From Pseudobacteriovorax antillogorgiicola (GTDB lineage Bacteria > Bdellovibrionota_B > Oligoflexia > Oligoflexales > Oligoflexaceae): a stretch of 64,000 bases of DNA. Below, in pieces: positions 1-9,166 of this stretch. Below the pieces are notes generated by a model. It saw only the letters and a program-made list of their open reading frames with translations. It made no database searches and was not told the origin of the DNA. The stretch covers positions 1 through 64,000 of the forward strand of contig NZ_FWZT01000019.1 of NCBI RefSeq assembly GCF_900177345.1, read 5' to 3'. The first letter of the stretch is position 1; the number at the start of each line of letters is the position of its first letter. The position numbers and the translations under genes are program-made.

Positions 1-2
1 CA

Positions 3-308
3 CTCAAATACCATCGCTACTTCAAAGCTTGGTATGAGAGCCCAGAAGATGCTAGTGAATGCTTGCAAAAGTTTTTTGGTTGGTACAACACTGAGCATCG
101 ACACATAAATCTTGGCTTGATGACGCCTGAAACTGTTCATCAAGGTAAAGATAAGTCTGTAGCTAAGAAGAGAGCTGCGGTTCTCAAGCAAGCTTTTGAA
201 GCCTATCCAGAAAGGTTTCCAAAGTCCGGACCTAGACTGCCAGTACCCGCTGATTCTGTGGGTATAAATGTACCGGTGGTAAGGAAGTCTATACCCGTTT
301 TGGGGTGA
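3..308 (+). CDS. IS3-family transposase, C-terminal part (cut by window edge)
   Basis: The frame is open from base 3, before the first ATG at 63, so this is the tail of a gene that begins outside the window. The protein carries the end of an rve/DDE integrase core as in OrfB of IS3-family elements: a WYN-x-EHRH stretch, then LGLMTPETVHQGK, then a basic segment rich in Lys and Ala and the PERFPKSGPRLP segment typical of the very end of these transposases. It would have catalysed cut and join reactions at the element's ends. Only about 100 residues are visible, so activity cannot be judged. It marks the left edge of the region as mobile-element territory. Confidence 0.85.
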   Translation, partial: LKYHRYFKAWYESPEDASECLQKFFGWYNTEHRHINLGLMTPETVHQGKDKSVAKKRAAVLKQAFEAYPERFPKSGPRLPVPADSVGINVPVVRKSIPVLG

Positions 309-323
309 TTGTTATACTAAACT

Positions 324-353
324 TTCACCCTAATTGTCTCAAACACCCTGACA
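324..353. repeat. Putative right end (terminal inverted repeat) of the IS3-type element
   Basis: Just after the transposase stop lies a segment ending CACCCTGACA; read from the right it starts TGTCAGGGTGTTTGAGACAA, which has the look of an IS3-type terminal repeat. The left partner is outside the window, so the boundary at about 353 is inferred from position and the terminal TGT/ACA. The last codons of the leftward ORF at 325-705 fall inside this segment. Confidence 0.4.
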
Positions 354-705
354 TATTCCGCTCCATATTCATGGCCAATGGGTTTTCACCGTGAATTTCT
401 TCGAAGTGTTCAGCACCAGTTTCGATGAAGTGCCTGAAGAATGTACCGGGCTCAAACTCACTTAGACCAGTAGCTACGTAGCACCCGAAGTCATTCTTCG
501 ATGCATACCTGATATATGTGAGTAGTTCTGATAGTAGTTCTTGTTCTTTTTCGACGAATCTACTATGGCTTTGTGTGACGTATTCAGCGAGATTGCTTTC
601 CGAGTAAATATTACATGGCTTTCTTATAGGTTGAGACTTATCATCACATGACTTGTAGATACTTCTGCAAGTATGAAATTCCAAGCCTATATAGCACTGC
701 TTCAT
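325..705 (-). CDS. Hypothetical protein, possibly truncated by the IS element
   Basis: An ORF of 126 codons with ATG at 705 and no obvious Shine-Dalgarno site. It has several Cys residues, a coiled, acidic centre (VEKEQELLSELL) and no signal peptide or membrane segment. I do not recognise the family. Its last eight or so codons lie in the putative IS terminal repeat, so the original C-terminus may have been replaced when the element inserted. R1 copy 1 lies directly upstream in the opposite orientation. Expression is uncertain. Confidence 0.45.
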   Translation of the reverse strand: MKQCYIGLEFHTCRSIYKSCDDKSQPIRKPCNIYSESNLAEYVTQSHSRFVEKEQELLSELLTYIRYASKNDFGCYVATGLSEFEPGTFFRHFIETGAEHFEEIHGENPLAMNMERNMSGCLRQLG

Positions 706-727
706 TGTATTGTTGTCTGTATATCAA

Positions 728-1000
728 TTTCAAAATGTCACCCAAGTTTTCGAGGATTCATGGGTGAACCCTCCGCTCTCAACCATTGCGATCTACGGAT
801 TCACTTGAACCTATAAAACAAAGCTACGTTTCTGCTATCCTAATATTATCGGGAATGGTGTTGTGCGCCCGGATTTCTAGTTGAGTGCTAGTTTCGGACC
901 AAAAACTAGCGGGGTATCGAGACCCCACCCCTGATCGATTGAAAAGAGATTTTTTCTCAAGTTTCTCGATCAAAAGTGGAATTTCAATTGGTGAAACTCA
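728..1000 (+). repeat. R1 repeat element, copy 1
   Basis: Full-length copy of an intergenic element also found at about 2147, 3105 and 5865. Conserved blocks are TTTCGAGGATTCA (5' end), GCGATCTACGGATTCACTTGA, ATCGGGAATGGTG and GATCAAAAGTGGAATTTC (3' end). Hairpins: GAGGATTCA (752-760) with TGAACCCTC (765-773), and TGATCGA (932-938) with TCGATCA (966-972) enclosing an A/T-rich inner helix. A further stem GCTAGTTT/AAACTAGC lies near 887-910. The right edge touches the stop codon of the leftward gene at 998. Confidence 0.85.
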
Positions 1001-1435
1001 GCAGATGGTGAACCCAACAAATACATCAAACTGACTGATTACCCTAAGAACCTGAGTTTCGGCTTCGGTGCATGCTTCCGAAGTTCCTTGATCGTCGAGA
1101 GAGGACTTATCACAGGCTCTTTTTGACTTATAGAGAGACCTTATTATTCGTCGATTGTCTGCTAATTCTACTAGATCTAAGTAGAAGTCTGATTCAGGGG
1201 TGATGAGGGTTGGCTGAAGATCAAAATCGCAAAGCTTAACTTCAACTTCAGAACCAAAGCTCCCAAGAAAATCAAAATTTTCGTCAATCTTGCTTCTTAA
1301 TTGTTTTATAATTCCAAACTCTATATTCGCTTTTTGCCATAAGTCTTCCACAGTTTGTTTTTGGTCGCTTGCAGCATTGGAAAGGCTGCTAGCCAGCATC
1401 ATAGCTCCAAGGATTGATGAATTTACGAATTTCAT
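998..1435 (-). CDS. Hypothetical secreted protein
   Basis: The best start is ATG 1435, which gives a classical signal peptide (MKFVNSSILGAMMLASSLSNA followed by AS) with GGAG about 12 nt upstream; the frame extends further upstream but without a better signal. The mature protein of about 125 residues has five or six Cys (CDF, RACD, EACTEAE, TIC at the extreme C-terminus), suggesting disulfides and a periplasmic or exported location. No known family was recognised. The 3' end abuts R1 copy 1. Confidence 0.6.
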   Translation of the reverse strand: MKFVNSSILGAMMLASSLSNAASDQKQTVEDLWQKANIEFGIIKQLRSKIDENFDFLGSFGSEVEVKLCDFDLQPTLITPESDFYLDLVELADNRRIIRSLYKSKRACDKSSLDDQGTSEACTEAETQVLRVISQFDVFVGFTIC

Positions 1436-1737
1436 ACTAATAGTTTTCTCCAGAGAATTAAGGTTGAGGTCAAAACACGCGCAGTTTTCAATTGGGACCA
1501 TTATCCCATAGGCAAGGTGAGCTTTATGCTCGGTCCTTAATGATTAGCCAAAAAGACTAACAATAGTCAAAGATATTGCAGAAATTTTAATAACAAAAAT
1601 GTTACTTTCACCATATATGGATACGCCGCCGTTACAAGCAAAATCGATGAGGGGTGTGTGGTTACTACCATATATCCGACCTTTAGCGAGAATCGTCATT
1701 CTCTGGTCCTAATGGAATTCGAGCCGCTCCGTCTTAT

Positions 1738-1797
1738 CAATGTTACATTCACCATATGAACTCTAAAAACTGTCTTTTCGAATCCTACCTGATCTGC
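1738..1797 (+). repeat. R2 short repeat, copy 1
   Basis: Begins with a GTTAC-x-TTC block and ends with CCTACCTGATCTG; in between lies an AAAAA-CTGT-CTTTTC segment. It aligns with segments at about 2072, 8031 and 8812. A partial relative (AATGTTACTTTCACCATAT) lies at 1598-1616. Degenerate; boundaries approximate. Confidence 0.5.
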
Positions 1798-1803
1798 AGG
1801 TTC

Positions 1804-1986
1804 TCAGCCCTCTGCTCCAAAGAATAGTCCAAGAGACAATTGTAAAACGGGGATGCCGTTGTAGGCGCCGTACGCCATGTTAAGACCCCACTCTTTACCG
1901 ATCAGCAATCCTAGTTCCGCGCCATAATAGAGGCCGCTCTTGAGAGCTTTACCTCTTGATTCCGCAAATGGTAGAAGTATCTTCAT
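1804..1986 (-). CDS. Doubtful small ORF, perhaps the tail of a beta-barrel gene
   Basis: A 60-codon ORF starting at ATG 1986. The sequence is Gly/Leu/Tyr-rich with alternating residues (YYGAELGLLIGKEWGLNM), like the last strands of an outer-membrane barrel, but there is no signal peptide. It could be a remnant. The rest of the interval 1436-2450 holds R2 and R1 copies and no other gene that I can support. Confidence 0.25.
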   Translation of the reverse strand: MKILLPFAESRGKALKSGLYYGAELGLLIGKEWGLNMAYGAYNGIPVLQLSLGLFFGAEG

Positions 1987-2071
1987 AACAAGCCTTTTGA
2001 CTACTGATGACGCAAGTTTACAATTTCTAGGATTTTGGATTCCCTGATTTTAGTTTATCTTATGTGGAGTA

Positions 2072-2130
2072 ACTAGTTACTTCTCGGAAGTAGGGTTTTA
2101 TTAAGCGTTTTTCATCTCCTGATCAGAAAT
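2072..2130 (+). repeat. R2 short repeat, copy 2
   Basis: Contains GTTACTTCTCGGAAGTAGG, an AAGCG-TTTTT segment and CCTGATCAG. It aligns with the copy at 8812 (GTTACTTTCGGCAGTAGG, AAGCGACTTTT, GTGATCT). It sits directly upstream of R1 copy 2. Confidence 0.45.
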
Positions 2131-2146
2131 AGTTGTCCGTACATAT

Positions 2147-2426
2147 AAAACCCAAGCATTTCGAGGATTCAAAGATACCCCTCCGGTCTCAGACATGCCT
2201 TCAGCAAAGCTATGGCGATCTACGGATTCACTTGATCTACAAAACAAGGGAGTATTTTGTTATCCTGGTATCATCGGGAATGGTGATGTACGCTTAGATA
2301 TCTAGTTAAGTGCAAAATTTATGATCAAAAACTAAGCAGCGCATCCAGCCCAACTTTTTATCGATTGAAAAACATATTTTTCACATTTTTCTCGATCAAA
2401 AGTGGAATTTCTAATGGTGAATCCAG
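2147..2426 (+). repeat. R1 repeat element, copy 2
   Basis: Same order of conserved blocks as copy 1. The 5' hairpin is degenerate here (GAGGATTCA faces a changed arm). The 3' hairpin is kept with different bases: ATCGA (2360-2364) pairs with TCGAT (2392-2396), and the inner helix is TGAAAAA (2366-2372) with TTTTTCA (2377-2383). The 3' end is about 25 nt before the ATG of the lipoprotein gene at 2451, so the element could lie in its leader. Confidence 0.85.
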
Positions 2427-2450
2427 TTGTAAGGTCAGACAGAGAACATC

Positions 2451-2996
2451 ATGAAACAGTTTATATTTTGCTTGGTTGTAGCGCTTATTACTTCGTGTAA
2501 GATGTTCGGTGATAAAAAATGCAGCCCAAAATCCACCAAGGTTGAAGGCCAGACTTTATATACTTGCTATGCTGACAATGCCCCATCTTTTGGGTCTAGG
2601 TGGGTTAAAGGATTTTCATGCTCCAACACAGGATTTATACCTCAAACCCATAGCATAAAAGCAATCAATGACTCTGTAGTTCGCTTTCCAATAGCAACTT
2701 GTATCGATAAAGGCGGCAATATCGAACTCGTTGGAGAAAGAGGATCAAGCCTAATTTGCTCACCGGAAAACTATGGTAAATGGGTAGAGATTCTTGATCA
2801 ACAGTTCACCAAGAAAGTGTATTTTAGATGTCACGATATCCAACTAGATTTGAAGTGGCCTAATCCAAAATTGTTGGAAAACTCTGATGTTCGAGATGCT
2901 GAGAAAGGAAATTTCGAATCGGACCGAATAAAAGTATGTCCTACCGGAGAAAGGAACGTGTCCAATAATCCCCAGATCGTCCAATGTGGAAGTTAG
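2451..2996 (+). CDS. Hypothetical lipoprotein
   Basis: 181 residues starting with a short lipoprotein signal (MKQFIFCLVVALITSC, lipobox LITSC, Cys16). The mature part has about ten Cys, several in short pairs (KKCSP, YTCYA, FSCSN, ATCID, LICSP, FRCHD, KVCPT, VQCGS), which suggests a disulfide-stabilised envelope protein, perhaps two repeats of a Cys module. No named family recognised. The gene sits alone between R1 copies 2 and 3 and may be transcribed through R1 copy 2. Confidence 0.7.
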   Translation: MKQFIFCLVVALITSCKMFGDKKCSPKSTKVEGQTLYTCYADNAPSFGSRWVKGFSCSNTGFIPQTHSIKAINDSVVRFPIATCIDKGGNIELVGERGSSLICSPENYGKWVEILDQQFTKKVYFRCHDIQLDLKWPNPKLLENSDVRDAEKGNFESDRIKVCPTGERNVSNNPQIVQCGS

Positions 2997-3104
2997 AGAC
3001 AAAGCAACACCAACTTGCTATAAACTGATCAGTGACCAAGGCTAAAAAGCAGGTGTACCAATGATCTGTACTACCTTTATTGTATTCGCCAATAGGATTT
3101 CAAA

Positions 3105-3421
3105 AAACGATTCCCCTCTCATAGCCTGTTCGGCGATAATCCACCAATTTCATAGTATCACCCAAGATTTCGAGGATTCAAGGATGAACCCTCCGGTCTC
3201 AGCTATGACGATCTACGGATTCACTTGAGCCTATAAACCCAAGGAAATATTCAGCTACCCTGATATCATCGGGAATGGTGGTGTGCGCTCAAAATCTGAA
3301 TTTAGACCTGTTTCGATAAGAAAACTAGCTTCCAGTTAGAAACCCACCCTCCGATCATGAAAATCTGGCTATATTTTCAGAAAACCTGATCAAAAGTGGA
3401 ATTTCTACTGATGAATCTCAG
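3105..3421 (+). repeat. R1 repeat element, copy 3
   Basis: The longest copy. It shares with copy 4 an extra 5' block (AAAAAACGAT, CCCTCTC, CGATAATCCA) upstream of the common start. 5' hairpin GAGGATTCA (3172-3180) with TGAACCCTC (3185-3193). 3' hairpin GATCA (3353-3357) with TGATC (3387-3391), inner helix TGAAAAT (3358-3364) with ATTTTCA (3373-3379). It ends about 80 nt before the pdxJ start. Confidence 0.85.
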
Positions 3422-3499
3422 AATAACAAGTAGTATCAGGGTTAAAGGCCTTTTTAGTAGAACAGGCCAAATAGGGTGATATCCAGAAAGGAGATTGAA

Positions 3500-4234
3500 T
3501 TGACTCTGCTGAGCATAAATGTTAACAAAATTGCTCTTTTAAGAAACTCTAGAGGAACCAATCATCCCAACCTTGCTAAGTTTGTACTTAAGCTGATCGA
3601 CCTTGGAATTAATAGTATTACAGTCCACCCCAGAGAAGACGAACGCCATATTAGGTACAATGATGTGAAAGAGTTACATCATCTACTGTCTAATTATAAA
3701 GATGTTGAACTGAATATTGAAGGTTATCCAAGTGATCGATTCTTGAATCTAGTCTCCAAATACGCACCAAATCAGGTCACCTTGGTTCCAGATTCTATTC
3801 ACCAGCTCACTTCAGACCATGGTTGGGAGATTGCGAATGACATGAACTTTCTAAAATCTTCTGTTGCACGATTAAGAGAGATTCCTTCAAGAATATCTTT
3901 ATTCTGTGAACCGCTAACTAAAGATCTTCTTCTTGCAAAGGAGTTGAACGTGGATCGAGTTGAGATCTACACTGGTAAGTATGCAAATGACTTTGGATCT
4001 GAGAGAGAAGAAGAAACAACTAGAACCTTTGAGGCAAGCATCTCCCTGCTTAACTCTATTGGCCTGAAAGGAAATGCTGGCCATGATTTATCTTTAGAGA
4101 ATCTCAATAGTTTTCTACAACTCGGAGTCATTGAGGAAGTTTCCATTGGGCATGCGTTTACAGAAGACTGCATCTATCTTGGAGTCGATGAAGCGGTAAG
4201 AAGATATTTGGAGATAACCAACCAGCTTGCTTGA
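3500..4234 (+). CDS. pdxJ: Pyridoxine 5'-phosphate synthase PdxJ
   Basis: Last step of the DXP-dependent vitamin B6 route: joins 1-deoxyxylulose 5-phosphate with 3-amino-2-oxopropyl phosphate to make pyridoxine 5'-phosphate in the cytoplasm. About 244 residues, the normal length. Family blocks are in order: SINVNKIALLRNSRG, TVHPREDERHI, LNIEGYPS, VTLVPDS, IYTGKYAN, GNAGHDLSLENL and VSIGHAF. The start chosen is TTG 3500, because AAAGGAG (3487-3493) lies six bases before it and the protein then begins like other PdxJ proteins; the frame also has a GTG at 3476. Divergent at some positions (FCEP where FIDP is usual). R1 copy 3 precedes it; a PLP enzyme gene is the next gene downstream, on the other strand. 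Confidence 0.9.
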   Translation: MTLLSINVNKIALLRNSRGTNHPNLAKFVLKLIDLGINSITVHPREDERHIRYNDVKELHHLLSNYKDVELNIEGYPSDRFLNLVSKYAPNQVTLVPDSIHQLTSDHGWEIANDMNFLKSSVARLREIPSRISLFCEPLTKDLLLAKELNVDRVEIYTGKYANDFGSEREEETTRTFEASISLLNSIGLKGNAGHDLSLENLNSFLQLGVIEEVSIGHAFTEDCIYLGVDEAVRRYLEITNQLA

Positions 4235-4432
4235 GTTCTGTAGAGGTTTTTTGACAAGGTTATTGTTTACATGTGCAAGATGGTCGCGGTCTTCTGAAAG
4301 CCTTGCAAGCAACACTGCCCCCTAGCTATGTGGATATAGCCGTAAGGACATGTTTGAAGCGTTAGTAGGGGATGCCCAGACCTTACATACTTAATTGAGT
4401 CACTGCTCCTATTCATGTGGTCCACTCAGATG

Positions 4433-5395
4433 TCAGTTTTGTTCAAGACATTTGAGGAGCAAGGATTGGTCTATATTGCTACCAGTCATGATGATTCCTA
4501 TTTTTTTACCTCTATTCACTCCAGACTCCTTCATTAGTCCTGCTAGCGCTGCCGATGAAGCTGTTTCGGCTAGATTATGAGTATCTATATAATAGTACCC
4601 TACAGCTTTAGCGACTTCATTATCACTCACAGAAATAATACGCTGTGCACCATTCTTAACAACCTCAAAAGCTTCATCGGGAGGAACTGAGGTGGCAATT
4701 CCGTCAGCAATTGTATTCACATCGAAAATGGGAGATATCTTTCCTTGATCAAAGGAAATCTTCCATGCCGGCGCACCGGCACTCACAACCCCAACAATTT
4801 CAGTTTTCAGACCAAGCAAATCTCTTGTTTTAATCAAACCTACAATTCCTGATCCCATACCGACAGGAACATAGATCCGATCGAAATCAGGGATAGCTTG
4901 CATCATTTCTAAAGCATAAGTTGCTACACCAACAGCCAAATCTAATTCAAAAGCATCCACATAGCGCAGTCCTAACTCGTCCTGCATATTCTTGCTATAC
5001 TGCCTAGCTTCTTCAAAATTCTTTCCGTGGATTATTAGTTTAGCCCCGTGGGCTTCAATACTCCTATTTTGATCTGCACTATTTCCCTCTGGAACGATAA
5101 TTGTGACAGGAATATCAAAACGCTTTCCTGCAAAAGAAATACTCTGGCCGTGATTACCTCTTGTAGCTGTAATTAGGCCTCTCAAGGAAGAATTCTCCCG
5201 GCATAGGCGATGTAAAAGATTAATGCCACCCCGCACCTTGAAAGCTCCCGTAGGAGTTTGATTCTCATGCTTAACCCAAACCTCGCAACCAACTCGAGCA
5301 CTTAAGAGTGGCCAGCAGTGCAGTGCAGTGGGCTGAACAAATTTGTTCACAATTTTAACTGCATTTTCGATATCTTCTTTTTTAAAATCAAACAT
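4433..5395 (-). CDS. PLP-dependent threonine/serine dehydratase-like enzyme
   Basis: 320 residues with the fold type II (tryptophan synthase beta-like) signature: PTGAFKVRGG holds the PLP lysine (K53), TRGNHGQS is the substrate loop, and VPVGMGSG is the phosphate-binding Gly loop. The family removes the amino group of Thr or Ser, or racemises Ser; the exact substrate cannot be read from sequence. There is no C-terminal ACT domain, so it resembles catabolic or short forms rather than IlvA. A cupin gene lies 76 bp upstream on the same strand, probably co-transcribed. The pdxJ gene, which makes the cofactor, is convergent. Confidence 0.85.
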   Translation of the reverse strand: MFDFKKEDIENAVKIVNKFVQPTALHCWPLLSARVGCEVWVKHENQTPTGAFKVRGGINLLHRLCRENSSLRGLITATRGNHGQSISFAGKRFDIPVTIIVPEGNSADQNRSIEAHGAKLIIHGKNFEEARQYSKNMQDELGLRYVDAFELDLAVGVATYALEMMQAIPDFDRIYVPVGMGSGIVGLIKTRDLLGLKTEIVGVVSAGAPAWKISFDQGKISPIFDVNTIADGIATSVPPDEAFEVVKNGAQRIISVSDNEVAKAVGYYYIDTHNLAETASSAALAGLMKESGVNRGKKIGIIMTGSNIDQSLLLKCLEQN

Positions 5396-5471
5396 ATTGA
5401 AAACTCCACTAGTTCGTCGATGATATGGATTACCAACAAACCATACTCATGGCTTTGGATTTTAGGTTAGC

Positions 5472-5855
5472 CTAGATCCATACATCGTTATCAGCGCGAA
5501 GATCACTTTGCGCCTCTCCGGTATTGATGACGCCTTTAGGCTCAAGTAGGAGTAACTTAGACCGAATGATCGCTTCGGGCTTATGACTAATTCCTTTGGG
5601 AACAACAAATAGTTCGCCCTCTCTTAGGTCAACAATCTGTGATTCTAGATGGATCTTAATGTGCCCTTCTAACACGAGAAAAGCTTCGTCAGTATCATTA
5701 TGGCTATGCCAAACAAACTCTCCCTCAAACCATGCTATTTTAAACTGGTATTGATTTAGTTCTGCTACAACTCGGGGTGACCAGTTTTCGCCGAGCAATT
5801 CAAATTTATCTAGCAAGTTGACTTTTTTATTGTTCATAGGACTCACATTCGGCAT
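5472..5855 (-). CDS. Small cupin-domain protein
   Basis: 127 residues forming one cupin barrel. Motif 1 is WHSHNDTDEAFLVLEG, with metal-type His, His and Glu; motif 2 is FVVPKGISHKPE. This resembles mannose-6-phosphate isomerase-like cupins of unknown substrate. ATG 5855 and ATG 5837 (MNNKKVNLL) are both possible and neither has a strong Shine-Dalgarno site. The 5' side abuts R1 copy 4. It likely forms an operon with the dehydratase-like gene downstream. Confidence 0.8.
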   Translation of the reverse strand: MPNVSPMNNKKVNLLDKFELLGENWSPRVVAELNQYQFKIAWFEGEFVWHSHNDTDEAFLVLEGHIKIHLESQIVDLREGELFVVPKGISHKPEAIIRSKLLLLEPKGVINTGEAQSDLRADNDVWI

Positions 5856-5864
5856 TAGAAATTT

Positions 5865-6047
5865 AAAAAAAACGATCTCCCTCTCCAGCCTGATCTATGA
5901 TAATCCAACAATTCCATCAATTCACTCAAGATTTCGAGGATTCAAGGATGAATCCTCCGATCTCAGCTATGGCAATCTACGGACTCACTTGACCTATAAA
6001 ACAAGCTACTTTTCTGCTATCCTGATATCATCAGGAATCGTGAATTC
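5865..6047 (+). repeat. R1 repeat element, copy 4 (3' truncated)
   Basis: Carries the 5' block shared with copy 3, then a perfect 9-bp hairpin: GAGGATTCA (5936-5944) with TGAATCCTC (5949-5957). The A-C mismatch of copies 1 and 3 becomes an A-T pair here. It stops after the ATCAGGAATCGTG block, next to the stop codon of the leftward leucine-rich-repeat gene; the 3' hairpin is absent. Confidence 0.8.
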
Positions 6048-6050
6048 CTC

Positions 6051-7256
6051 TTACTGACTCGGCATTCTAGAATAGAGCTCGGTGTCTTGAAACCCCTGAA
6101 AGTTTGCTAGTATCTCATCGATTGTCAACATAAGATTTGCCTGTGAAAAATGTAATCTAAGCTTGTTTCGGCTGATATCTCGCACGAAAAGCCCTCTTTG
6201 AGGAGCGGGGAGTTCAAGGGCAATACCTCTGATAAGTGATCCTTCAAATGAAGTTGCCGGAGCAATCGCTGCAAACTTGCCGCTATAAGGGCCTTGAATT
6301 TGTTGACAGTCGTTAGAGCAAAAAGATATGTCCATCTTCAGATCTGGCTTGAACTCCACCATAGTATAGTAGCAATTACCGTAGCTAAGTTCACAAGTGT
6401 CAGATTTCCATTTTCCAATCAAACTCTCTTCGCTAGTGCTGTAGATTGTGCACCACTCTTTAAGTGGTTCATTGGCCACATCGTTTCCAGTCGGACAGTT
6501 TTTACTAGTTTTTTGGAATGTCTGGTCAAGCGGATTTTCATCTAGCAACAGTTTTCTGATTTGCCCCAGGCCTTTAAGGGCGGAAAAATTTTCGACCTTG
6601 TTCGATCGTAGGTCAAGATATGCCAAGGAAGAAATTGATTCCAGCGGCCCAATATCTCTAATGTTGTTGTTGCTAAGAGTAAGAGCAGTCACCTTAAGCG
6701 TTGCAAGAGGAGACACGTCTTCGATAGCGTTGGACTCTAAGTGTAGATTTTTCAGGTTTTTCAAGTGGCTCAGAGGTTCCAAATCGCTAATATTGTTATC
6801 GTATAATTGAAGATCTTCCATCTTGGAAAAGCTTGAAAGCGCCGAAATATCTTTAACTTTGTTCCCATCAAGATCCACTGAAACAACCTTGGAGAGTCCA
6901 TACAAAGGACTAATATCGACAATGTCTTTATCCGGGATAGTAATGGTCGTCAGCTCTCTCAAGGAACTATTTGCGTCAGCGCAGTTATCTGCTCCAACAT
7001 GATCCAATAATATTTGAACAGTTCGCTTTATCTCTGCATTAGAATTCTCGTCTTCGCAATAGTCAAAAAATTGTTTCTTTCGACATTTCTGACCGTCGAA
7101 AACCTCAACTGCGCTGCATTGCTTAGGGTTCACCAGAGGAAGCTCTTGACCTTGCTCCTCCGACGAGGACTTGTCAGAATCATAGCGATCGCAGCTAGTC
7201 AGAGCAAGCATGGAGAACATTAAATGAACAAGAAGCTTTGTACTAGAGATCTTCAT
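6051..7256 (-). CDS. Leucine-rich-repeat lipoprotein
   Basis: 401 residues. Lipoprotein signal with lipobox LALTSC, then a polar linker and a Cys-containing segment. From about residue 110 to 245 there are six 22-residue leucine-rich repeats of the SDS22/internalin type (for example DISALSSFSKMEDLQLYDNN). A C-terminal domain of about 130 residues follows, with Cys pairs and a lipocalin-like look (GKWKSDTCELSYGN), not assigned to a family. Likely surface or periplasmic, binding a protein ligand. Its leader ends in a region without other features. Confidence 0.8.
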   Translation of the reverse strand: MKISSTKLLVHLMFSMLALTSCDRYDSDKSSSEEQGQELPLVNPKQCSAVEVFDGQKCRKKQFFDYCEDENSNAEIKRTVQILLDHVGADNCADANSSLRELTTITIPDKDIVDISPLYGLSKVVSVDLDGNKVKDISALSSFSKMEDLQLYDNNISDLEPLSHLKNLKNLHLESNAIEDVSPLATLKVTALTLSNNNIRDIGPLESISSLAYLDLRSNKVENFSALKGLGQIRKLLLDENPLDQTFQKTSKNCPTGNDVANEPLKEWCTIYSTSEESLIGKWKSDTCELSYGNCYYTMVEFKPDLKMDISFCSNDCQQIQGPYSGKFAAIAPATSFEGSLIRGIALELPAPQRGLFVRDISRNKLRLHFSQANLMLTIDEILANFQGFQDTELYSRMPSQ

Positions 7257-7431
7257 ATGGCTGCCTTCTTAAAATTTCTCAAAAATCCCATTTCACCTAG
7301 CAGGTGGTCACTCTCCTGATTGAGAACCATCAGTCTGAAGGAGTCAAAGCTACCTGATTTATTGCGTGTTGCCAGCAGCTCACTGAGCCAGCACATGGGA
7401 TTGTGGAATCTCGAAGAGATCACCTCAATGA

Positions 7432-7959
7432 TTAGCGGAAGAGGCAGCTATCCATATTTTCAGTCAGGCAGGTAACTGTGAGACTGATATCCGCACTCGG
7501 TCCATCGGTTTTGGGATGAGGGGAAGTAATACTATACGTTCTTATATCTTTGTTGAAGCTAACAGGAATTTGTTCCCATTCACATTCATCGCATTCTTCT
7601 TTACTAAAACCAGATACAATAAAATTCATTTCTTTTTCTCTAGCCTCAAAGGTAAGAATGTTACTTTTGTTTATCCTCTGACCATTCGTTCTAGGTATAG
7701 TATCAAGCATTTTTTGTTCTTCTACAGACCAAACTTGCATACGAAGTTTCCTATTCGAATGATAGACAATAGTGATTTTAAAAGGCTCATTTTTCGTTAC
7801 GGTAAAGTTCTTTGCTAGTGATGAATCTATTCCCTCATTTTCGATAAGAAAACCGTAATCAGGGTTAGACGTATCATTTGAGTCGTTCGTTTCATGACTT
7901 CCACAGGATATAAAACAAATAGATATTGATGCAATCGATGTTAGTAGAATCTTTTTCAT
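7432..7959 (-). CDS. Hypothetical lipoprotein
   Basis: Start taken at ATG 7959 (MKKILLTSIASIS), giving a short signal with lipobox CFISC; two more codons are open upstream. The mature protein of about 155 residues is beta-rich, with Cys only near the C-terminus (EECDECEW, TCLTENMDSC). No family recognised. It lies in a leftward run with the LRR lipoprotein and the gene at 8116, separated by 150-170 bp gaps. Confidence 0.65.
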   Translation of the reverse strand: MKKILLTSIASISICFISCGSHETNDSNDTSNPDYGFLIENEGIDSSLAKNFTVTKNEPFKITIVYHSNRKLRMQVWSVEEQKMLDTIPRTNGQRINKSNILTFEAREKEMNFIVSGFSKEECDECEWEQIPVSFNKDIRTYSITSPHPKTDGPSADISLTVTCLTENMDSCLFR

Positions 7960-8811: not shown

Positions 8812-8872
8812 TCACGTTACTTTCGGCAGTAGGATCTCAAAAAGCGACTTTTCTAAAACCAGGTGATCTCTG
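8812..8872 (+). repeat. R2 short repeat, copy 4
   Basis: CGTTACTTTCGGCAGTAGGA, then AAAAAGCGACTTTTC (a small hairpin AAAAG-cga-CTTTT) and CCAGGTGATCTCTGG (CCAG/CTGG hairpin). Best-preserved copy for comparison with the others. Upstream of the leftward gene at 8766. Confidence 0.55.
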
Positions 8873-9166
8873 GCACGCTCAAATTGAAATCACTCCCTGA
8901 ATCTATTTGGATTCACTCCGCCTCGGCAGTGACACTACCTGATCAAACTTATTGCAGAAACCTATGAGAGATAGGCGCGACAACGTACTCTCTTGGGTGA
9001 TCAATAAACAGTAGTTTTTTGGCTACCCAAATTGCTGGATATTATTCGATGGTTATGCAAACGCAAAAAACCTACGAAACGCATGTATATACAGTGACTT
9101 ACAAAAAATCACGCGTGCTCAGATCACGCACATTTCCTCATAGGAGGGTTAGCAGTTTAGAGATAG

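What the first reader, a model, noticed from the sequence alone, without database searches (positions are those of the whole stretch)
728..6047. R1: a four-copy intergenic element with covarying hairpins
Four copies (728-1000, 2147-2426, 3105-3421, 5865-6047) lie in one orientation within 5.3 kb, each between genes. Seen directly: the 3' hairpin is kept with different bases in each full copy (TGATCGA/TCGATCA; ATCGA/TCGAT plus TGAAAAA/TTTTTCA; GATCA/TGATC plus TGAAAAT/ATTTTCA), and the 5' hairpin repairs an A-C mismatch to A-T in copy 4. That is the pattern of selection on RNA structure, followed by a conserved single strand AAAAGTGGAATTTC. Two copies sit just before rightward genes (lipoprotein 2451, pdxJ). 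It may be a structured non-coding RNA, a 5'-leader control element, or a MITE-like repeat. I know no named family it matches.
Basis: partly seen in the sequence, partly recalled or inferred. Interest (0 to 1): 0.72.

Follow-up and report, generated by a model that had tools for sequence, protein, structure and literature searches.

The report
Short mobile repeat in gene arrays
The four repeats are real. They are copies of a previously undescribed, non-coding, roughly 340-base element that looks like mobile DNA sitting in one-way gene arrays of this one genome. The evidence does not support the idea that it is a conserved structured RNA.

Summary
The repeat is real. The genome holds about 17 alignable copies plus fragments; four are in the window, all in one orientation. 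Full copies are about 340 bp, longer than reported, with sharp ends: GTTACTTTCRSCAGTWGAAATTC ... GAATTTCTAYTGGTGAATCTCAG. A sister family (R2) has the same ends and a different middle. Arrays on five contigs are internally co-oriented. The genes between copies are unrelated, and several are fragments cut exactly at an element end. No target duplication was found in 10 full elements. Six AT-rich bases flank both ends (p about 1e-4). Neither R1 nor an excess of its end motif is found in 55 related genomes.

The structured-RNA reading fails: covariation is no better than shuffled (0.064 vs 0.075), neither strand is favoured, the consensus fold is weak, and Rfam has no match. Integron membership also fails: too long, no R-box motifs, no integron integrase.

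Best reading: a lineage-specific, non-autonomous mobile element (MITE-like) moved in trans and reshuffled by copy-to-copy recombination. A site-specific recombinase is slightly favoured over a DDE transposase (no duplications; one natural joint, right end-TTTAAA-left end). The enzyme is not identified.

The parts
658..1001 (+). R1 copy 1, full length; left end diverged (GATACTTCTGCAAGTATGAAATTC), right end ...GAATTTCAATTGGTGAAACTCAG
   Evidence: its first ~65 bp have no BLAST match to other copies, the rest is 82-91% identical to the better-matching copies on other contigs
1601..1701 (+). left end and 5' part of sister family R2 (GTTACTTTCACCATATATGGATACGCC...)
   Evidence: 94% identical to C35:1193-1289, a copy that ends in the shared right end
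1742..1800 (+). isolated left end (GTTACATTCACCA...CCTGATCTGCAGG)
   Evidence: exact match to the end pattern
2076..2426 (+). R1 copy 2, full length, with an internal insert of about 20 bp also seen in some other copies
   Evidence: the lipoprotein gene starts 25 bp after its right end
3079..3421 (+). R1 copy 3, full length; 3' half of a different subtype, shared with the copy on contig C54
   Evidence: 72% to C54, 51-66% to the others over the 3' half
5842..6042 (+). R1 copy 4, 3'-truncated; followed at 6044-6064 by a group II intron 3'-tail remnant
   Evidence: the same tail belongs to the RF00029 hits on C15 and C39
8036..8110 (+). diverged left end of the family (GTTACCTTCGACAGTTGGATTTC...CCTGATCTGTGA)
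   Evidence: PWM score 23.4-27.2 against a maximum of 16.1 in shuffled sequence; this end was itself in the training set of both matrices
8816..8960 (+). diverged left end of the family (GTTACTTTCGGCAGTAGGATCTC...)
   Evidence: exact match to the 13-base end pattern; PWM score 26.9-28.5, in the training set

Best explanation
R1 (with sister family R2) is a lineage-specific family of non-coding, non-autonomous mobile DNA elements of about 300-360 bp. SHOWN: sharp ends carrying an imperfect inverted repeat, a variable middle, no conserved reading frame, no target duplication, an AT-rich six-base flank at both ends, co-oriented arrays with unrelated cargo, and breakpoints of gene fragments exactly at the element ends. 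INFERRED: an enzyme supplied in trans recognises the two ends. Elements insert at AT-rich sites or beside one another, and recombination between copies then swaps flanks, truncates genes and mixes subtypes. Because there is no target duplication and one natural joint reads right end - TTTAAA - left end (inverted arms around six bases), I think a site-specific (tyrosine-type) recombinase is somewhat more likely than a DDE transposase. I put mobile element at about 0.8 and tyrosine-type mechanism at about 0.4.
For: - Copies: 17-20 matches in the whole genome.
- Ends: a matrix trained on right ends recovers left ends on the opposite strand at the exact boundary (e.g. C15:14249-, 23.1 bits, not in the training set; best shuffled 10.7), so the inverted repeat is real.
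- Same ends with another middle: R2 at C37:365-668 and C35:1189-1468.
- Orientation: 8 of 8 in the window array and 5, 3, 3, 3 in four others, all co-oriented within each array; chance about 2^-17.
- No coding capacity.
- Dispersal, not local duplication: window neighbours are 55-75% alike over the 3' half, while copy 1 is 88-91% like copies on C15, C35, C37 and C52.
- Flanks: AT 78% in the adjacent six bases against 61.5% in background, p <= 1e-4 on each side.
- No target duplication in 10 full elements (11 boundary choices); the longest shared flank is 5 bp, within the range of mismatched controls.
- Breakpoints at ends: C15:10979-11307 is a 99.7% copy of the 3' end of a TonB-receptor gene and starts at the base after R1's right end; a GspG fragment and a group II RT fragment start at right ends; a repeat known from three other contig ends is cut after 84 bp at a left end.
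- Joint: C37 TTTAAA between an R2 right end and an R1 left end.
- End motif: 27 hits in this genome against 3 for the reversed control; relatives show only background numbers.
Against: No autonomous partner carrying these ends was found in the assembly. The short tyrosine recombinase near two arrays (C35:6142-6744, decayed copy C54:84-347) belongs to a widespread plasmid-borne family, so its link to R1 is circumstantial. Flanks beyond the six bases do not resemble the element's own arms, so no specific attachment site is shown. The RE-6bp-LE joint is a single instance. The outermost five bases differ between left and right ends, which is unusual for a transposase-cut terminus. The assembly is in 68 contigs and many array ends coincide with contig ends, so array sizes are lower bounds.
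Confidence: 0.55

Rival explanations
1. R1 is an ordinary MITE moved by a DDE transposase; the target duplications were erased by recombination between copies, and the arrays are a graveyard that collects insertions.
For: Inverted repeats, about 340 bp, no ORF and more than 10 copies are standard MITE features (PMC3852290). AT-rich flanks fit too. Mosaic copies and discordant flanks show that copies recombine.
Against: No target duplication in any of 10 full elements. Strict co-orientation in five arrays is not expected of independent insertions. No insertion sequence with these ends was found.
Confidence: 0.25
2. R1/R2 are attC-like recombination sites of an integron or integron-like cassette array.
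For: Co-oriented palindromic repeats separated by unrelated genes, mostly of unknown function, with variable middles between conserved ends; a group II intron inserted in one end on C39.
Against: attC sites are 55-141 nt with R boxes RYYYAAC/GTTRRRY (PMC7370490); R1 is about 340 bp and the end sequences show no such boxes. No integron integrase reaches the family cut-off in the genome; the best hit is 21.5 bits against 265. Cargo genes lie on both strands.
Confidence: 0.08
3. R1 is a structured non-coding RNA or a 5'-leader control element.
For: Single copies fold into hairpins; some copies sit 19-55 bp before intact genes (2451 lipoprotein, 3476 pdxJ, C35:481).
Against: No covariation beyond shuffles, strand-neutral pairing, weak consensus fold, no Rfam match. 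Right ends also abut gene fragments and reverse-oriented genes. Family restricted to one genome.
Confidence: 0.07

Closest known systems
Bacterial MITEs (non-autonomous derivatives of insertion sequences)
   Same: Short, no ORF, terminal inverted repeats, more than 10 copies, intergenic
   Different: No target duplication seen, no parent element with the same ends found, co-oriented in arrays
SE / GInt / Tn554 / RIT group of tyrosine-recombinase integrative elements (PMC10214605)
   Same: Imperfect inverted repeats of 13-19 bp, 6-bp spacer at the joint and 6-bp footprint (as described for SEs)
   Different: SEs carry four genes including two recombinases; R1 carries none, no such operon was found, and no specific attB is shown
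Integron cassette arrays (attC sites)
   Same: Tandem co-oriented repeats with unrelated genes between them, conserved ends and variable middle
   Different: Length, missing R boxes, no integron integrase, genes on both strands
Mobile insertion cassettes and REP-like repeats (from general knowledge)
   Same: Non-autonomous inverted-repeat units scattered between genes
   Different: No sequence comparison was made with these; REPs are much shorter

Membership tests
MITE | terminal inverted repeats | tested here: met
   TTCACCARTAGAAATTC at both ends; cross-detection of ends by matrices
MITE | no coding sequence, short, multicopy | tested here: met
   stops in all frames of full copies; 17-20 matches
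MITE | target site duplication | tested here: not met
   none in 10 full elements, 11 boundary choices; duplications are described as occurring only sometimes (PMC3852290), so this lowers but does not exclude membership
MITE | autonomous partner with the same ends | tested here: not met
   end pattern searched in the whole assembly; exact matches lie only at R1/R2-type elements; the assembly is a draft
Integron attC | R-box motifs RYYYAAC and GTTRRRY at the ends | tested here: not met
   read directly from the end sequences of all copies
Integron attC | 55-141 nt hairpin site | tested here: not met
   full copies 340-363 bp
Integron attC | integron integrase in the genome | tested here: not met
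   TIGR02249 best 21.5 bits, cut-off 265
SE/Tn554-like element | inverted repeats with 6-bp spacer at a joint | tested here: inconclusive
   one natural joint RE-TTTAAA-LE on C37; AT-rich hexamers next to the ends
SE/Tn554-like element | own tyrosine recombinase genes | tested here: not met
   R1 encodes nothing; five PF00589 hits in the genome, at separate loci
Structured RNA family | covariation supporting a conserved structure | tested here: not met
Structured RNA family | transcription as an RNA | not testable with these tools
   no expression data

The most novel reading that the evidence does not exclude
R1/R2 ends are the recombination sites of a cassette-capture system that is not an integron. 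Two inverted arms and a six-base spacer let an unidentified recombinase assemble co-oriented arrays of genes and gene fragments.
Probability: 0.2. Interest if true: 0.7.

Novelty: new variant of a known kind. Interest (0 to 1): 0.38.

Why it matters
If the mobile-element reading is right, this is an undescribed repeat family that builds one-way gene arrays in a large genome without an integron integrase. It would be a second route to cassette-like gene collections and a simple system for finding the enzyme that moves them. It also shows that hairpins in a handful of repeats are not evidence for an RNA: inverted-repeat mobile elements produce the same impression, and 15 copies were enough to separate the two.

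Tried and rejected
- Structured RNA: rejected on covariation, strand symmetry and fold; no Rfam match.
- Classical integron: rejected on integrase, motif and length.
- Coding element: no conserved ORF.
- Local tandem duplication: rejected, neighbours in the window are not each other's closest relatives.
- Movement of an 84-bp flank together with R1 on C15: at first it looked like co-mobilised flank, but the 84 bp turned out to be a separate multicopy repeat also at the ends of C7, C13 and C36.
- Resemblance of the R1 interior to a group II intron 5' end: a recalled resemblance only. The two RTs whose Rfam intron domains were found away from the arrays are of other types, so it was dropped.
- Short tyrosine recombinase as the R1 enzyme: near two arrays, but it is a common plasmid recombinase; left open.
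- Arm-like target sites next to the hexamer: not supported.
- Homologues elsewhere: none in 55 relatives, plasmids, phages or viral contigs; a single chance-level hit among the genome contigs.

Full report
CHECK OF THE OBSERVATION. The four copies are present, co-oriented and intergenic. Similarity between them is far beyond chance (E 1e-19 to 2e-45 within the window). The true ends lie further out than reported on the left: about 658-1001, 2076-2426, 3079-3421 and 5842-6042. Copy 4 lacks its 3' half.

COPIES IN THE GENOME. The window is the first 64 kb of contig C19 of a 7.28-Mb, 68-contig assembly. Copies 1 and 3 as DNA queries give 17 and 20 matches. Groups lie on C15 (10639, 14223, 15249, 18224), C19 (the window), C35, C37 and C54; single copies or fragments lie on C4, C5, C8, C52 and distally on C15, with a short fragment on C31. 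No match at E <= 0.001 was found in 55 related genomes, including six of the same family, and none in plasmids, phages or viral contigs. The conserved 3' pattern matched one unrelated genome contig, consistent with chance.

ANATOMY. Aligning the copies with their flanks shows sharp ends: GTTACTTTCRSCAGTWGAAATTC at the left and GAATTTCTAYTGGTGAATCTCAG at the right, an imperfect inverted repeat with a near-perfect 17-bp core. A weight matrix trained almost only on right ends finds left ends on the other strand at the exact boundary (two left ends had slipped into that training set, but others, such as C15:14249-, had not). A second family, R2 (C37:365-668, C35:1189-1468), has the same ends and a different middle. 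Further left ends occur in the window at 1601, 1742, 8036 and 8816. In all, 22 ends or elements in five arrays are co-oriented within each array (8, 5, 3, 3, 3), which has a chance of about 2^-17. There is no conserved reading frame.

RNA TEST. Alignment A1 has 15 copies. Internal helices pair in 370 of 436 cells on either strand, so there is no wobble preference for one strand. The consensus fold has -5.65 kcal/mol with a covariation term of -0.65. A few individual compensations are real (columns 330/346 and 333/343, two copies each) but no more frequent than expected. The alignment in the diverged 3' hairpin of copies C19c and C54 is uncertain, which could hide one or two events.

FLANKS AND BREAKPOINTS. 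Ten full elements (eleven left/right boundary choices) show no target duplication; the longest shared flank is 5 bp and mismatched controls reach 7 bp. The six bases next to the ends are AT-rich (78% against 61.5%; p <= 1e-4 on each side). In that script the left ends of copies 1 and 2 were entered a few bases too far out (655 and 2068 instead of 658 and 2076); this affects two of 33 flanks in the AT test, where the correct positions are more AT-rich, and two of the eleven pairs in the duplication test, where the corrected flanks, read by eye (CTTGTA/CAGATG and TAACTA/TTGTAA), show no duplication either. The element ends coincide with breakpoints of host sequence. C15:10979-11307 is a 99.7% copy of the 3' end of the TonB-receptor-like gene at 5257-7548 (named from its sequence, not tested against a library) and starts one base after R1's right end. 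GspG and group II intron RT fragments begin at other right ends. A repeat also present at the ends of C7, C13 and C36 is cut after 84 bp at a left end. In the three copies where a flank could be matched to an intact locus elsewhere, the other flank came from somewhere different, so these are not simple insertions. On C37 an R2 right end and an R1 left end are joined by exactly six bases, TTTAAA.

MACHINERY. No integron integrase reaches cut-off. Five PF00589 hits exist; one intact 200-aa recombinase lies on C35 4.7 kb from an array, and a decayed 86%-identical copy lies about 30 bp from R1-derived sequence on C54. That recombinase family is common on plasmids (1,554 plasmid records), so the association is suggestive only. 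A sequence beyond the hexamer resembling the arms was looked for and not found. No other gene bears the R1 ends.

INTERPRETATION. The facts shown are those of a non-autonomous mobile element family. The mechanism is inferred. Missing target duplications, AT-rich hexamers and the one RE-6bp-LE joint resemble the ends of SE/Tn554-type elements (inverted repeats of 13-19 bp, 6-bp spacer, 6-bp footprint; PMC10214605), so I lean to a site-specific recombinase acting in trans, with a DDE-driven MITE as the main rival. Arrays would then grow by insertion near other copies, and recombination between copies would exchange flanks and halves; copy 3 in the window looks like such a mosaic (its 5' half matches other copies at about 80% while its 3' half is 51-66% alike except to C54).

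VERDICT. Observation confirmed, coordinates widened. RNA interpretation not supported; MITE-like interpretation supported in a variant form. Moderately interesting: a new repeat family with unusual one-way arrays and an unidentified enzyme.

Noticed in passing
window 1-360: Looks like the C-terminal end of an IS3-type transposase (read from the protein, not tested); near-identical copies of these 360 bp sit on contigs C3, C5, C18, C20, C31, C42 and C53, several at the contig end, so the assembly breaks at this insertion sequence.
   Followed up: partly
window 6044-6064; L037:18658-18733; L100:8768-8843: Group II intron 3' domains (RF00029 on C15 and C39) lie beside R1-type ends; on C39 the intron interrupts an R1-type left end.
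   Followed up: partly
L037:1-5062 and L042:2742-7775: Two copies (92% identical DNA) of a phage tail module; on C54 the endolysin gene is fused to the middle of an R1 copy, and a fragment of the same gene is fused to R1 at the same place on C37.
   Followed up: partly
L039:1462-6744: A small HTH-like protein, Dcm-type cytosine methyltransferase, a large uncharacterised protein and a short tyrosine recombinase next to the C35 array; possibly a restriction or defence island.
   Followed up: no
L095:3490-4210 (C35:11490-12210) and L038:1684-2161 (C15:21684-22161): An unrelated repeat of about 480 bp shared by C35 and C15, with a 75-bp relative at window 8998-9072; it may be a plasmid replication-gene remnant.
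   Followed up: partly
L100:1256-1371: SAM riboswitch (RF00162, 84 bits) on contig C39.
   Followed up: no
window 998-1501: A reverse-strand ORF whose stop codon lies in the right end of R1 copy 1, so it is probably truncated by the element.
   Followed up: no
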